This document shows positions 46,173-56,943 of a stretch of DNA of 58,252 nt, in pieces. The DNA is taken from IMG/VR virus record IMGVR_UViG_3300044802_000092, positions 1 through 58,252 of that record. One strand, given 5' to 3'. A program made the position numbers and the translations under genes. This DNA comes from a virus. Below the pieces are notes generated by a model. That model was not told the origin of the DNA, did not search any database, and was given only the letters and a program-made list of their open reading frames with translations. Position 1 is the stretch's first letter. Each line of letters starts with the position of its first letter.

Positions 46173-46494
46173 AGAAAAAGCTAAAACACACGGGGACTTC
46201 ACCGACCAAGCTCAAATGGCGCAGGGCCTGAAGTCTGTCTTACATGCCTCCCGCCGTTGGGACGGCATGACCGCTGTCCAGCGGGAGGCGGCAGAAATGA
46301 TTTTACACAAGCTGGCGCGGGCATGCAGTGGGGACCCCTGGGCGCGGGACCATTGGCAGGACATCGCGGGGTACGCTACGATGGTGGCCGACCGCAGTCC
46401 ATGCGCGCACGCCGCAGAGATATACGGCGGCAGCGGCGGCGGCACAGCGGTGTGTCAGGGATGCGCCTCTCAGGGTGATGGAGTAAAGTTATGA
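46150..46494 (+). CDS. DUF6378-like protein (114 aa)
   Basis: MSVMELIEEKAKTHGDFTDQ, then SRRWDGMTAVQREAAEMILH and GDPWARDHWQDIAGYATMVA match a small phage family (DUF6378-like). The core is helical. The C-terminal 30 residues are Gly-rich with Cys89, Cys106 and Cys109 and may bind a metal. Overlaps the upstream gene by 23 nt and the next one by four, so coupled to purZ. Confidence 0.6.
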   Translation: MSVMELIEEKAKTHGDFTDQAQMAQGLKSVLHASRRWDGMTAVQREAAEMILHKLARACSGDPWARDHWQDIAGYATMVADRSPCAHAAEIYGGSGGGTAVCQGCASQGDGVKL

Positions 46495-47564
46495 GTGTGT
46501 TAACTGACCTGTGTATCCCCGGTCGAGCATCGTTTATCGTCGGCGGGCAGTTTGGCAGTGAAGGAAAAGGGGCGGCGGCGGCGTTTTTGGCAACACGCCT
46601 AGCCACAGCCGGGATGAAATTCAACCTGCACACCACTAACGCCGGAGCGCAGGCTGGACATACTAGCATTCATATGGGGAAAACCCGAGTCACCAACTTC
46701 TTGCCTACCGCAGCAATTGTTGCGGCGGATCACGGTCCAGAGTTCCTGTCAACAATCTATCTCAACGCCGGGGCAATCATCAACCCAGACGCGTTGCTGG
46801 CAGAAGCGAGGGAGTTTATACCTCAATTTATGGATGGGAAGTTTTTTATTCACCCCAACGCCGCCGTTATTACCGAGGATTGTGTTGCGGTCGAAAGGAG
46901 TTCTACGTCTCCTGCAACAGCCATTTCTTCAACCCGCAAGGGGGTGGGTGAGGCCCTGGTCCGCAAGGTTTCCCGATGTGGGAATATTGCCAGCAATGTC
47001 GAAAGTTTGAAGCCGTTCATAGCAAACATAGACCTTAATCGGCAGCTGCGGGCCTGGACCTCCGTTTTAATTGAGGTCCCCCAGGGTCTGGGTTTGAGCC
47101 TAGATTCCCAGTTCTACCCCTACTGCACCAGCAGAAACTGTACGGTAGAAAAGGGGATGGACGACGCCCACATTCACCCCCACTTTTACGGGAACACCAT
47201 GCTCGTTCTTCGAACTTACCCCATCCGAGTTGGTAGTTTGGAAGGGCACTCTTCGGGAGGTTGTTACCCAGATCAGCGCGAAATATCCTGGGAGGAACTC
47301 GGTAGAAAGCCGGAATTGACTACAGTGACAAAGCGACAGCGGCGGGTCTTCACGTTTTCTATGACACAGGCCCGCGAGGCGATACGGCGGCTGCGCCCCA
47401 CCGTGATTTTTCTGACTTTTTGCGACTATCTGAAGGACAAGGTGGAGGCATATCGAATGGCTAAATCCTTGGCCCTTATGATTCAAACCGAGGGGCTGCC
47501 CGAGGCGGAAATCTATGGGGCATGGGGGCCAACAACCACGGACGTAACTGGGCTTGCTGTGTAA
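46491..47564 (+). CDS. purZ: PurZ-type adenylosuccinate synthetase homologue (357 aa)
   Basis: P-loop IVGGQFGSEGKGAAA: Ser23 occupies the position where PurA has the catalytic Asp (GxQWGDEGKG), the known PurZ signature that fits dGMP. TTNAGAQAGHTSIHM and EVPQGLGLSLDSQFYPYCTS follow, as in the PurA fold, with SSGGCYPDQREISWEELG and SMTQAREAIRRLRPTVIFLT later. At 357 residues it is shorter than PurA (about 430). It would make the succinyl adduct of dGMP in 2-aminoadenine synthesis; host PurB then yields dZMP. ATG overlaps the upstream stop. Confidence 0.85.
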   Translation: MSVLTDLCIPGRASFIVGGQFGSEGKGAAAAFLATRLATAGMKFNLHTTNAGAQAGHTSIHMGKTRVTNFLPTAAIVAADHGPEFLSTIYLNAGAIINPDALLAEAREFIPQFMDGKFFIHPNAAVITEDCVAVERSSTSPATAISSTRKGVGEALVRKVSRCGNIASNVESLKPFIANIDLNRQLRAWTSVLIEVPQGLGLSLDSQFYPYCTSRNCTVEKGMDDAHIHPHFYGNTMLVLRTYPIRVGSLEGHSSGGCYPDQREISWEELGRKPELTTVTKRQRRVFTFSMTQAREAIRRLRPTVIFLTFCDYLKDKVEAYRMAKSLALMIQTEGLPEAEIYGAWGPTTTDVTGLAV

Positions 47565-47567
47565 GAC

Positions 47568-47596
47568 TTGACAAGAACGGGCTTGCGTGGTAGGGT
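47568..47596 (+). promoter_or_regulatory. Promoter (TTGACA / TAGGGT)
   Basis: TTGACA (47568-47573), 17-nt spacer ending GCGTGG, TAGGGT (47591-47596). It starts four bases after the purZ stop and drives the two MazG-like genes. Confidence 0.75.
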
Positions 47597-47629
47597 GGAC
47601 GCTGTCTAAACTGTCAACATAGGTGAACC

Positions 47630-47956
47630 ATGTCAGACATAGGGTACAATGTTCCCACCTTTACCATAACGACCGAAGTTCCCGAAAGTGTTATACATTA
47701 TCGGGAAGGACTACAAAAGTTCTTTGCCGGGATGGCCTTCAAGTTGCACGTAAATGCACACAAGCCTCCGCCGAAGATCGAAGAGCTTCCCACCCTGATG
47801 CTGCGCCTAATGGGCGAGGTGGGGGAGTTGATCGAACAGCTGATGAAAGACGACCGGAGCCCGAACGCCGCACATGAGGCGTTCGACACCGCCAATTTCG
47901 CGTTCTTGGTCTATTTGGCCCTGTTGACGCGGGATAACCCAGTCAAACTTCCATAA
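47630..47956 (+). CDS. MazG-like nucleotide pyrophosphohydrolase, MazZ candidate (108 aa)
   Basis: The metal-binding pattern of MazG-like enzymes is visible: GEVGELIEQL (ExxE) followed about 20 residues later by HEAFDTANFAFL (ExxD). Small all-helical protein. Next to purZ, this would hydrolyse dGTP (and perhaps dATP) to supply dGMP and deplete dATP, as MazZ/DUF550-type proteins do. ATG with AGGTGAACC upstream. A close relative follows at 48025. Confidence 0.7.
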   Translation: MSDIGYNVPTFTITTEVPESVIHYREGLQKFFAGMAFKLHVNAHKPPPKIEELPTLMLRLMGEVGELIEQLMKDDRSPNAAHEAFDTANFAFLVYLALLTRDNPVKLP

Positions 47957-54354: not shown

Positions 54355-54652
54355 CCTATGAGTGCTATTGTGATGGGGACCTCCCGGGTGTTTCCAAACC
54401 TACTGCACCTGCCGCCGATGTCTGGATCTGAGGAATTGGGCGAAAATTTCCGCGCCTTGTTTCTGTTGGGCCTACGGTGATCTGCATGACGCGGTACGGG
54501 AACTGGTGGCGCAGGTTGCGCCGGACGTGCCAGGGGTCGCGCAAGAATGGGAGGCACTAATGATGGAAATCCGAAGGGCTAAAAACGTACCCAAAGCAAT
54601 ATGCGACACCGTGTCACATCAAGCGGTGTTTCCGAACAAAGCAAATACTTGA
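54351..54652 (+). pseudogene. Zinc-binding phage protein, split by -1 frame change
   Basis: ATG 54351 (MTYECYCDGDLPG) begins like a common phage Cys-rich protein. This frame stops at 54429. From C_CCG_GGT (54383-54389) the -1 frame continues open as CFQTYCTCRRCLDLRNWAK and later PCFCWAYGDLHDAVREL, with the expected Cys pairs of the same family, to TGA 54650-54652. The family normally has about 40 more residues between the two halves, so a deletion likely brought them together out of frame. C_CCG_GGT also fits a slippery heptamer, so programmed frameshifting cannot be excluded. Confidence 0.6.
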
Positions 54653-54677
54653 CAAACCCGGTCAAGTATGATAAAAT
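54645..54677 (+). promoter_or_regulatory. Promoter with overlapping operator palindrome
   Basis: TTGACA (54649-54654), 17-nt spacer, TAAAAT (54672-54677), the best -10 in the window. The -35 is inside an exact inverted repeat ATACTTGAC (54645-54653) and GTCAAGTAT (54661-54669), 7-nt centre. A half copy ATACTTGAC occurs at the 26.4-kb promoter. This suggests repression by one regulator, perhaps a small helix-turn-helix protein encoded just upstream. Confidence 0.75.
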
Positions 54678-54781
54678 TAAAACATAGATAGGGCGGCGAG
54701 GGGAGCGGGGCAGGAGCCCACAAACCAGACCGGGAAGCCCAGGGTGAAACAGTCGAGCTGACCTCACCAGAAAACAACCAA

Positions 54782-54828
54782 TGTCGTGGGATGGGCGTCC
54801 CACCTGATGAGCCGAAAACGGCGAAACA
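54782..54828 (+). ncRNA. Hammerhead ribozyme, type III
   Basis: Order: stem III TGT (54782-84) and cleavage triplet GTC (cut after 54785), stem I GTGGGA/TCCCAC (54786-91/54798-803) with loop TGGGCG, core CTGATGA (54804-10), stem II GCCG-AAAA-CGGC (54811-22), core GAAA (54823-26), then ACA pairing back to TGT. All conserved core residues are present. Short 3-bp stem III is usual for this type. It lies in the leader between promoter and the 62-aa gene, 68 nt before its start, so cleavage would remove the 5' leader. Confidence 0.85.
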
Positions 54829-54852
54829 AACTGTCAAACATAGGAAACTAAC

Positions 54853-55041
54853 ATGACTAACTACATCGTCACAATGCGCTTCCAGTTCCCCGCGTGGGAC
54901 GAAAAAGACGGTATCGAATTCGAGGTGTCGGCTGCCAATAAGCGTGAGGCTAATGCAAAAGGCCGCCGCCAAGCGAAAGATGCCGGCCATGCGAGAGCAA
55001 ACCGCGGCCTCTACTGGTTCAAAGCAACTGAGGCGCGCTAA
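54853..55041 (+). CDS. Small protein of the array (62 aa)
   Basis: MTNYIVTMRFQFPAWDEKDG then IEFEVSAANKREANAKGRRQ and a basic C-terminus. It has a beta start and basic helix, similar to short phage proteins of unknown role. AGGAAA precedes its ATG; a conserved AAACTGTCAAACATAGG leader is between the ribozyme and the ATG. Its last 17 codons are inside the first of three 75-bp repeats, so the 3' end is duplicated downstream. Confidence 0.6.
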   Translation: MTNYIVTMRFQFPAWDEKDGIEFEVSAANKREANAKGRRQAKDAGHARANRGLYWFKATEAR

Positions 55042-55213
55042 GCGCCTCACCCCAAGAAAGGCAATGCGAGAGCAAACCGCGGCCTCTACTGGTTCAAAGC
55101 AACTGAGGCGCGCTAAGCGCCTCACCCCAAGAAAGGCAATGCGAGAGCAAACCGCGGCCTCTACTGGTTCAAAGCAACCGAGGCGCGCTAAGCGCCTCAC
55201 CCCAAGAAAGGCA
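54989..55213 (+). repeat. Three perfect 75-bp tandem repeats
   Basis: Copies 54989-55063, 55064-55138 and 55139-55213; the first two match exactly and the third differs by at least one base (T to C at the arm). Each holds the stop region of the 62-aa gene and the hairpin TGAGGCGC-gctaa-GCGCCTCA, which is weakened by one base in the third. Arose by duplication of the gene's 3' end. Could serve as terminator/stabiliser array. Confidence 0.9.
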
Positions 55214-55254
55214 ATGCGAATGTACAAATGGATTGGATCTCACCGAAAAACACT

Positions 55255-55300
55255 GTAGTAGGATGTATGTCCTACCTGATGAGCTGAAAATAGAAAGTAA
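55255..55300 (+). ncRNA. Degenerate second hammerhead
   Basis: Stem I GTAGGA/TCCTAC (55258-63/55270-75), core CTGATGA (55276-82) and triplet GTA (55255-57) are kept, with stem I changed by a compensatory pair (G-C to A-T) relative to the first copy. Stem II is disrupted (GCTGAAAATAG) and a CG before AAA appears deleted; stem III cannot form. So it is probably inactive. Followed by the same AAACTGTCAAA leader and the next gene. Confidence 0.65.
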
Positions 55301-55320: not shown

Positions 55321-55692
55321 GTGAAAAAGTGCCTCACCCAAACAACTGCCGATACGGCTCCCGTCCACCTGGCGATTTGGTACTTCGAGCGCGGCGTCAA
55401 GATCTATAAAATTTCGCCCTGCGTGTGTGGCGACCTTTCCGGCGTGCGCGGCGATCTTACCGGCGTGAGCGGCTATCTTTCCGGCGTGCGCGGCGACCTT
55501 ACCGGCGTGCGCGGCGACCTTACCGGCGTGTATGGCGATCTTACCGGCGTGAGCGGCGACCTTACCGGCGTGTATGGCGATCTTACCGGCGTGAGCGGCT
55601 ATCTTTCCGGCGTGCGCGGCGATTTGGATGACGCCGAAATAACCAACGCCGATCGCGAACTTGGTGTTAACATTGCTGACCTAATTCAGTAA
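55321..55692 (+). CDS. Heptad-repeat protein (123 aa)
   Basis: GTG start, AGGAA upstream. Residues 37-101 are nine units of RGDLTGV/SGYLSGV, seven residues each, encoded by a 21-bp DNA repeat. This x-G-D-(L/V)-x-G-(V/L) heptad is common in phages and probably builds a beta-solenoid like pentapeptide repeats. Ends with an acidic helix. Unknown function; possibly DNA-mimic or protein-interaction. Confidence 0.7.
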   Translation: MKKCLTQTTADTAPVHLAIWYFERGVKIYKISPCVCGDLSGVRGDLTGVSGYLSGVRGDLTGVRGDLTGVYGDLTGVSGDLTGVYGDLTGVSGYLSGVRGDLDDAEITNADRELGVNIADLIQ

Positions 55693-55699
55693 TAAATTT

Positions 55700-55736
55700 G
55701 AGGGGCTTCGGCCCCTCATTAGTCCATTTTTAGGAC
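55700..55736 (+). terminator. Cassette boundary 1: hairpin GAGGGGC-TTCG-GCCCCTC
   Basis: Perfect 7-bp stem with a UUCG loop (55700-55717) then ATTAGTCCATTTTTAGGAC, a second small hairpin GTCC (55722-25)/GGAC (55733-36) with a U-rich loop. This ends the heptad-repeat gene and begins the leader of the next. Confidence 0.8.
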
Positions 55737-55761
55737 AAACCGTTAAACATAGGAGAATAAC

Positions 55762-56043
55762 ATGACTAAGACTATCGTTACTGCGGTTATCGTCACTGAA
55801 GACAGCACTGTTGGCTTCTCCACCTGCGTTGCGGAAGACGGATCGCTGGAATAGGTAATCGACGGTGCAATTGAAACGGCCATTGAGCAATACGAAGAGG
55901 GAACGAATTGCTCCGTTCCCTCCTTGCATCGGGTGATTGTTCACGTCGATACGGTACCCCCGTTAAAGCACCGTATCACTAGTGTCCACCATGTTTTACC
56001 TGAGCAGGACAACGACGAAGTAATTACAACGACCTTGTCATAG
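55762..56043 (+). pseudogene. Cassette gene interrupted by amber codon (94 codons)
   Basis: ATG 55762 with AGGAG upstream. Reading frame runs to TAG 55852-55854 (after MTKTIVTAVIVTEDSTVGF... GSLE) and then stays open as VIDGAIETAIEQYEEG to TAG 56041-56043, a length of 93 sense codons. A W codon TGG mutated to TAG is the simplest explanation. TAG is used as a normal stop elsewhere here, so read-through is not assumed. Both halves look like one small acidic protein. Confidence 0.65.
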
Positions 56044-56050
56044 CACATTA

Positions 56051-56104
56051 GGGGATTCGGGGCAAATCCCGAATCCCCCCCTTAGTCCCTTTGTAAAAAT
56101 GGAC
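56051..56104 (+). terminator. Cassette boundary 2
   Basis: GGGGATTCGGG (56051-56061) pairs with CCCGAATCCCC (56068-56078), 11 bp, followed by the GTCC (56085-88)/GGAC (56101-04) pair with a longer loop containing U and A runs. Confidence 0.8.
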
Positions 56105-56129
56105 ATTTAGTAAAACATAGGGGAATAAC

Positions 56130-56381
56130 ATGCGGAAGTACCTAACCCTCAACGTTCAGCTTACGGCTTCGGTTAATGATTCGGTCACCAGTCTGGATGC
56201 TGTCAACGCGTTCGTTAATTGGCTCAAATACTCGCTTGTTCAGGGTCAACCGCTGTCCCGGGACGACCGCATTGATCTTATATTCGAGAAGCTGGGTCAG
56301 ATTAAGCTGGAGGACCTGACATTTTATCCTTGGCCCGAAGCCTCGCTCCCGCCTAAACCGGAAGATCTCACCGGAGTCTAA
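56130..56381 (+). CDS. Small cassette protein (83 aa)
   Basis: MRKYLTLNVQLTASVNDSVT then FVNWLKYSLVQGQPLSRDDR and a Pro-rich C-terminus. The GQPL element recurs in the 64-aa cassette gene at 56944, suggesting a distant paralogue. ATG has AGGGGAATAAC upstream. No family recognised. Confidence 0.6.
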   Translation: MRKYLTLNVQLTASVNDSVTSLDAVNAFVNWLKYSLVQGQPLSRDDRIDLIFEKLGQIKLEDLTFYPWPEASLPPKPEDLTGV

Positions 56382-56391
56382 ATATTGCAAG

Positions 56392-56434
56392 GGAGGATGG
56401 GTCGCCCCATCCTCCTGTTAGTCCCTTTTCGGAC
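56392..56434 (+). terminator. Cassette boundary 3
   Basis: GGAGGATGGG (56392-56401) pairs with CCCATCCTCC (56406-56415), 10 bp, loop TCGC, followed by GTCC (56421-24)/GGAC (56431-34) with loop CTTTTC. Confidence 0.85.
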
Positions 56435-56458
56435 AGACTGTCAACAAAGGAGAACGTG

Positions 56459-56620
56459 ATGTTCAGATGTTGCGTAGCCACGTTACTAATACTGGTTTTC
56501 ACGCTTTCGGCCCGGGCCAACTATGGCAGCCGGTGCGGATACTGGCGGGCCACTTCTTCGCAGGTGTGGCACCCGCTGTGTGGGGGAAAACCGGTCTGGT
56601 CTCCCGCAGGTCTCAAATAA
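56459..56620 (+). CDS. Tiny secreted Cys-containing protein (53 aa)
   Basis: MFRCCVATLLILVFTLSARA is a signal peptide with likely cleavage before NYGSRC. The mature part is only about 33 residues with two cysteines and several Trp (GYWRATSSQVWHPLC). AAAGGAGAAC precedes the ATG. Too short for many gene finders. Likely exported to the periplasm; unknown target. Confidence 0.55.
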   Translation: MFRCCVATLLILVFTLSARANYGSRCGYWRATSSQVWHPLCGGKPVWSPAGLK

Positions 56621-56624
56621 ATTT

Positions 56625-56642
56625 GAGGGGCCGAAGCCCCTC
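56625..56642 (+). terminator. Cassette boundary 4: GAGGGGC-CGAA-GCCCCTC
   Basis: Perfect 7-bp stem with a 4-nt loop and short U-rich tail GTTTGCTT. This boundary lacks the GTCC/GGAC mini-hairpin. Confidence 0.75.
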
Positions 56643-56668
56643 GTTTGCTTAAACTAAAGGAGGTAATA

Positions 56669-56872
56669 ATGTTTAAGCTTGGTTGTGCAATATTGACACT
56701 AGGACTGCTATTGGGGGCGGCCCCAGCGGTGGCACAGTACCCGGACGTTTGTCCTAACCACTGTGCCCGTAAGTGCCTGCAGTGGGTGCAGACAGAGGCT
56801 TACGGCGCCCGGTGTGTGCGAGTTGCCTGTATCTGCTCGCCCCGCCCCTGGCGGCAGAATCCCCCATATTGA
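56669..56872 (+). CDS. Small secreted Cys-rich protein (67 aa)
   Basis: Start ATG 56669 with AAGGAGGT upstream. MFKLGCAILTLGLLLGAAPA VAQ is a signal peptide. Mature region has six cysteines in about 40 residues (DVCPNHCARKCL, ARCVRVACICS), suggesting disulphide bonds in the periplasm or outside. Next to another small secreted protein. No family recognised. Confidence 0.6.
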   Translation: MFKLGCAILTLGLLLGAAPAVAQYPDVCPNHCARKCLQWVQTEAYGARCVRVACICSPRPWRQNPPY

Positions 56873-56882
56873 GGTCTAATTT

Positions 56883-56921
56883 GAGGGGGTTTCGACCCCC
56901 TCGCTTGGTCCATTTTTGGAC
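56883..56921 (+). terminator. Cassette boundary 5: GAGGGGG-CCCCCTC
   Basis: GAGGGGG (56883-89) pairs with CCCCCTC (56896-902), loop TTTCGA, then GTCC (56908-11)/GGAC (56918-21) with six-base loop ATTTTT. Confidence 0.85.
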
Positions 56922-56943
56922 AAACTGTCAAAAGGAGATATCA

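What the first reader, a model, noticed from the sequence alone, without database searches (positions are those of the whole stretch)
54782..54828. Complete hammerhead ribozyme in a phage leader
All core residues, three helices and a GUC cleavage site are present in type III order. It lies downstream of a strong promoter and 68 nt before the ATG of a small gene, so it would remove the leader and leave a 5'-OH end. Position suggests control of mRNA stability or translation.
Basis: seen in the sequence. Interest (0 to 1): 0.85.

Follow-up and report, generated by a model that had tools for sequence, protein, structure and literature searches.

The report
Type III hammerhead in phage leader
A virus of bacteria carries a small RNA motif just before one gene that very probably cuts its own messenger RNA; many other phage contigs carry the same kind of motif in the same place, so this is a good new example of something already known rather than a new kind of thing.

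Summary
Window 54782-54828 (+) is a type III hammerhead: U-G-U-C^, stem I of 6-7 bp, CUGAUGA, stem II of 4 bp, GAAA. Rfam Hammerhead_3 finds exactly these coordinates (34.2 bits, E 5.6e-5 in 2.4 kb), below the curated cut-off of 48.5, largely because stem III has only 3 bp. A covariance model built from 51 other phage type III hammerheads scores it 56.2 bits (E 2e-14), inside the range of those sequences. A second, related copy (55251-55300) before the next gene keeps stem I, a shortened stem II and CUGAUGA, but has lost G12 and C11.1 and is probably dead. Hammerheads flanking phage genes were reported in 2011 (PMC3088659). Best reading: co-transcriptional self-cleavage between 54785 and 54786 removes about 100 nt of leader and gives the mRNA a 5'-OH end with two hairpins. 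Predicted folds do not favour a ribosome-site switch. Activity is not shown; weak stem III and the dead sister copy leave real doubt. New member of a known kind.

The parts
54649..54677 (+). Sigma-70-like promoter TTGACA-17-TAAAAT; inferred transcription start near 54684
   Evidence: 11 of 12 matches; weaker 9-of-12 sites are expected by chance; start site inferred
54684..54785 (+). 5' leader fragment of about 102 nt that cleavage would release (2',3'-cyclic phosphate end); no known RNA family
   Evidence: no other family there; fold; function inferred
54782..54784 (+). Stem III, 5' strand (UGU), pairs with 54826-54828
54785..54786 (+). Cleavage site: C17 at 54785, N1.1 (G) at 54786
   Evidence: position in the Hammerhead_3 alignment; cleavage itself not tested
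54786..54803 (+). Stem I GUGGGA/UCCCAC closed by hexaloop UGGGCG (a seventh U-G pair is possible)
54804..54810 (+). Core CUGAUGA (C3-A9)
54811..54822 (+). Stem II GCCG-AAAA-CGGC
54823..54828 (+). G12 A13 A14 (54823-54825) and stem III 3' strand ACA (54826-54828)
54828..54838 (+). Leader tail AAACUGUCAAA shared with other leaders of this phage (also 55299, 56922; variants at 47608, 55737, 56435)
54853..55041 (+). 62-aa ORF behind the hammerhead, unknown function (phrog_13774)
55251..55300 (+). Second, degenerate hammerhead copy: CACUGUA, stem I GUAGGA/UCCUAC with loop UGUAUG, CUGAUGA, then a damaged 3' half (G12 and C11.1 missing)
55321..55692 (+). ORF (GTG start, 21-nt/7-aa repeats) behind the degenerate copy

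Best explanation
A type III hammerhead ribozyme of the phage-leader kind. RNA polymerase starts near 54684. Once about 145 nt have been made, stems I and II form and dock through their loops, the 3-bp stem III closes the junction, and the RNA cleaves between C54785 and G54786. This frees a leader of about 102 nt with a 2',3'-cyclic phosphate and leaves the mRNA of the 62-aa gene with a 5'-OH end, two stable hairpins and a 67-nt leader. The most likely use is to set a uniform, protected mRNA 5' end, without a triphosphate or monophosphate for end-dependent decay, rather than to switch the ribosome site. Shown: sequence, structure, family membership, position. Inferred: transcription start, cleavage, end chemistry, purpose.
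For: Rfam match at the exact coordinates. Independent phage-trained model, 56.2 bits, within the 38-68 bits of most phage type III hammerheads found with it. The sister copy has compensatory changes in stem I (G-C to A-U) and stem II (C-G to U-A), so these stems were probably kept by selection after duplication. The loop I hexamer UGGGCG (sister UGUAUG) resembles the recurring UGAGUG/UGUGUG of other phage examples, as expected for the stem I-stem II contact. The position matches the class: 46 of 54 type III hammerheads have an ATG within 60 nt, against 15 of 54 control points; here it is 24 nt. Published bacterial and prophage hammerheads, grouped around genes in this way, cleave in vitro and in E. 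coli (PMC3088659).
Against: Stem III is only 3 bp, and forming it costs about 2.0 kcal/mol in the nearest-neighbour model; only 3 of 53 comparison sequences pay more. Pairing probability of stem III is near zero without tertiary contacts. In the full leader stem I forms with probability of only about 0.5-0.7 because of upstream competitors. The sister copy is probably dead. No close relative with a conserved copy was found. The score lies below the Rfam gathering cut-off.
Confidence: 0.65

Rival explanations
1. A decaying hammerhead: it descends from an active phage hammerhead, but weak stem III now makes it slow or inactive, and the leader keeps only the 5' hairpins.
For: The sister copy 472 bp downstream has lost G12 and C11.1. 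Stem III is among the weakest of 54. The other leaders in 55690-56940 keep hairpins and the AAACUGUC tail but no hammerhead core.
Against: Every core residue and both closed stems of copy 1 are intact; decay would be expected to hit the core at random. L216, L217, L238 and L131 also show 3-bp stem III.
Confidence: 0.25
2. A translation switch: uncut leader hides the ribosome site, cleavage opens it (or a ligand steers folding of stem I against the upstream GAGCCCAC stretch).
For: In the full leader stem I competes with upstream sequence. AUG exposure rises from 0.36 to 0.61 for one fragment length.
Against: Shine-Dalgarno exposure does not change (0.50 to 0.51), and the AUG change vanishes with a slightly shorter fragment. 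The leader fold is not more stable than shuffled sequence (z -1.0).
Confidence: 0.07
3. Chance resemblance: an ordinary two-hairpin leader that happens to hold the hammerhead letters.
For: Other leaders of this phage also hold hairpins before the same tail.
Against: E 2.2e-14 with the phage model, E 3.3e-7 with Rfam, 13 looser motifs in 556 Mb of simulated sequence, and a covarying sister copy.
Confidence: 0.02

Closest known systems
Type III hammerhead ribozymes of phages and prophages (Rfam RF00008; PMC3088659, PMC6155905)
   Same: Strand order, core, closed stems I and II, open stem III, location beside small phage genes, more than one copy flanking a gene
   Different: Stem III shorter than most; this one follows a promoter with a roughly 100-nt leader instead of sitting between two genes behind a hairpin; neighbour copy is probably dead
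IMG/VR phage type III hammerheads found here (e.g. L207 593-645, L220 3821-3873, L072 2154-2206)
   Same: Length and layout of stem I with a UGnnnG-like loop, 4-bp stem II with A-rich loop, 20-30 nt to ATG
   Different: Those usually have 4-6 bp stem III and often a strong hairpin just upstream; GUCC/GGAC stem II is common there
Satellite RNA hammerhead of tobacco ringspot virus (sTRSV; from my own knowledge and PMC6155905)
   Same: 6-bp stem I, 4-bp stem II, loop-loop contact type
   Different: Acts in rolling-circle replication, longer stem III, RNA replicon
HDV-like theta ribozymes of gut phages (PMC10879173, title and abstract only)
   Same: Self-cleaving ribozyme in a phage genome
   Different: Unrelated fold; tied to tRNAs and recoding; no tRNA in this window

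Membership tests
Hammerhead ribozyme (type III) | Conserved core CUGANGA ... GAA with A15.1-U16.1 and H17 | tested here: met
Hammerhead ribozyme (type III) | Closed stem I and stem II, pairs next to the core intact | tested here: met
   stem I 6-7 bp, stem II 4 bp; compensatory changes against the sister copy
Hammerhead ribozyme (type III) | Open stem III of adequate length | tested here: inconclusive
   3 bp only, cost about 2.0 kcal/mol; at the lower edge of the phage range, most of which have 3-7 bp
Hammerhead ribozyme (type III) | Reaches Rfam gathering score (48.5 bits) | tested here: not met
   34.2 bits; a curation threshold, not a defining biochemical feature; the phage-trained model gives E 2.2e-14
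Hammerhead ribozyme (type III) | Self-cleavage 3' of H17 | not testable with these tools
   needs in vitro transcription and 5'-end mapping
Phage leader hammerheads | Directly upstream of a start codon on the same strand in a phage genome | tested here: met
   24 nt to ATG; class statistics; phage genes
Phage leader hammerheads | Strong hairpin just upstream of the cleavage site (frequent, not universal) | tested here: not met
   z -0.15 for the window, against 24 of 54 type III with z below -2 and 20 of 247 control points
Second copy (55251-55300) as a hammerhead | G12 and C11.1 present | tested here: not met
   lost in the alignment with copy 1; no Rfam match; 23.7 bits by homology

The most novel reading that the evidence does not exclude
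Phages use hammerheads as a general device for making mRNA ends, and the rule is that each cleavage leaves a hairpin on the 3' end of the upstream RNA: type I supplies its own stem III hairpin, type III is preceded by a separate hairpin. The window copy is a variant of this device moved behind a promoter, where only the 5' end of the mRNA matters and no upstream hairpin is needed.
Probability: 0.3. Interest if true: 0.65.

Novelty: new member of a known kind. Interest (0 to 1): 0.42.

Why it matters
What hammerheads do in phages is still described as open (PMC6155905, PMC3088659). A promoter-driven, single-gene leader with one intact and one naturally broken copy is a simple test case: cleavage, mRNA ends and protein output can be compared on one short transcript. 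The abundance and tight spacing before ATG in IMG/VR argue for a role in mRNA 5'-end formation across many phages.

Tried and rejected
L004 (GUC, 6-bp hairpin, CUGAUGAG, GAAAC and the same leader tail) looked like a homologue, but Rfam gives nothing, the phage model only 21.5 bits, and CUGAUGAG folds into a perfect 8-bp hairpin; left as doubtful. The other hits lack a stem I hairpin and look like coincidences. Relatives of the 62-aa protein and of the neighbouring helicase carry no hammerhead. The leader tail alone finds no relatives with the motif. Pam3, the nearest named phage in some genes, has none in its first 50 kb. No relative of the 62-aa protein in bacterial genomes. My first structure string for the model (R1) was in the wrong register and was discarded for R2. 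The covariation counts are partly built in, because the sequences were chosen for pairing; of stem III only the third and fourth pairs (51 and 48 of 51) were not demanded.

Full report
Check of the observation. The stretch 54782-54828 reads UGUC^GUGGGAUGGGCGUCCCAC CUGAUGA GCCGAAAACGGC GAA ACA. Rfam Hammerhead_3 aligns to exactly these coordinates with 34.2 bits (E 3.3e-7 for this family in the window). It misses the gathering score of 48.5: the match covers model positions 5-50 of 54, leaving out the outer stem III pairs. A motif finder with looser rules (stem I at least 5, stem II at least 3, UH before stem I, no stem III) finds only this site in the window and 13 in 556 Mb of second-order Markov sequence.

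Comparison set. Among 247 distinct motifs with pairing stem II, 182 fit type I best and 54 type III. From 51 type III sequences, none from the window, I built model R2. It scores the window site 56.2 bits, E 2.2e-14, and a second site at 55251-55295 23.7 bits, E 1.3e-4; the rest of the window stays at 12 bits or less with filters off. The comparison sequences themselves mostly score 38-68 bits, so the window site is a typical member.

The second copy. 55248-55290 is 79% identical to 54776-54818. Stem I differs by a G-C to A-U exchange and stem II by a C-G to U-A exchange, which argues that the folded RNA was selected. In the 3' half, C11.1 is deleted and G12 is replaced or deleted, depending on how the gap is placed. 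G12 is the general base in the accepted mechanism (own knowledge), so this copy is very probably inactive. Its GTG-started ORF begins at 55321. The arrangement, two hammerheads around one small gene, is that described for prophages (PMC3088659; also PMC6155905).

Weak point: stem III. Only UGU/ACA pair. Forcing stem III costs 2.0 kcal/mol, more than in 50 of 53 comparison sequences. Four of the 53 also have 3 bp. Stem II is stable (probability about 0.9 or more), stem I about 0.5-0.7 in the full leader because upstream GAGCCCAC-like sequence competes. Loop I (UGGGCG; sister UGUAUG) resembles the UGAGUG and UGUGUG loops that recur in the comparison set, so loop-loop docking, which the energy model ignores, may pay for the weak stem III. 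High-activity type III hammerheads need this contact (PMC6155905).

Position and mechanism. A promoter-like TTGACA-17-TAAAAT lies at 54649-54677; transcription would begin near 54684 (inferred). Cleavage would release 102 nt and leave 67 nt before the ATG at 54853. In the comparison set 46 of 54 type III hammerheads have an ATG opening an ORF of at least 40 codons within 60 nt, against 15 of 54 random points; the window fits at 24 nt. Fold predictions show no change of Shine-Dalgarno exposure on cleavage. I therefore favour mRNA 5'-end formation over a translation switch. End chemistry (5'-OH, 2',3'-cyclic phosphate) follows from the ribozyme class and was not tested.

What differs from the common layout. 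Type III hammerheads between phage genes tend to follow a strong hairpin: 24 of 54 have z below -2 in the 37 nt upstream, against 23 of 180 type I and 20 of 247 control points; clear cases are L072, L099, L207 and L220. In type I motifs the upstream product ends with the closed stem III hairpin of the ribozyme itself. So in both types the upstream RNA tends to end in a hairpin. The window copy has none (z -0.15) and lies behind its own promoter, so for it only the downstream product seems to matter. This pattern is suggestive, not tested further.

Kinship. The window is a virus record with phage replication, terminase and nucleotide genes and Pam3-like proteins. No relative carrying the same hammerhead was found, so conservation of this particular copy could not be examined beyond its sister copy.

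Verdict. A real type III hammerhead by sequence, structure and family statistics; probably active, not proved; a new member of a known kind.

Noticed in passing
L072, L099, L207, L063, L220 and others (coordinates): Phage gene junctions with a repeated cassette: stop codon, strong hairpin (often GUGUCUUCAAAGACAC), type III hammerhead, 20-30 nt, ATG; three or more copies per contig in several cases.
   Followed up: partly
window 55690-56940: Leaders of later small genes share a layout: GC hairpin, then GUCC...GGAC hairpin, then AAACUGUCAAA-like tail and ribosome site. CUCAUUAGUCC near 55715 differs from CUGAUGAGUCC at two positions, so they may be hammerhead leftovers, or an unrelated leader design.
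   Followed up: partly
window 54985-55219: Three tandem copies of a 75-nt unit, 98-99% identical, that repeat the end of the 62-aa gene including its stop codon.
   Followed up: no
window 54645-54669: Inverted repeat ATACTTGAC/GTCAAGTAT over the -35 box and spacer of the promoter, a likely operator; another inverted repeat at 54601-54619.
   Followed up: no
window 47560-47632: Promoter-like TTGACA...TAGGGT followed at once by GGACGCTGTCTAAACTGTCAACATAGGTGAACCATG: the same leader tail without any hammerhead.
   Followed up: no
window 46491-47561: Adenylosuccinate synthetase-like protein whose best phage family is named 2-aminooxy adenylosuccinate synthetase (phrog_1211); the phage might use 2-aminoadenine in its DNA.
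   Followed up: no
window 55321-55692: ORF built of a 7-residue repeat (GDLTGVS/R/Y) from 21-nt DNA repeats.
   Followed up: no
L004 140-260 (-): Leader with the same AAACAAACTGTCAAC tail and a hammerhead-like but stem II-defective element before a start codon in a seemingly unrelated contig.
   Followed up: partly
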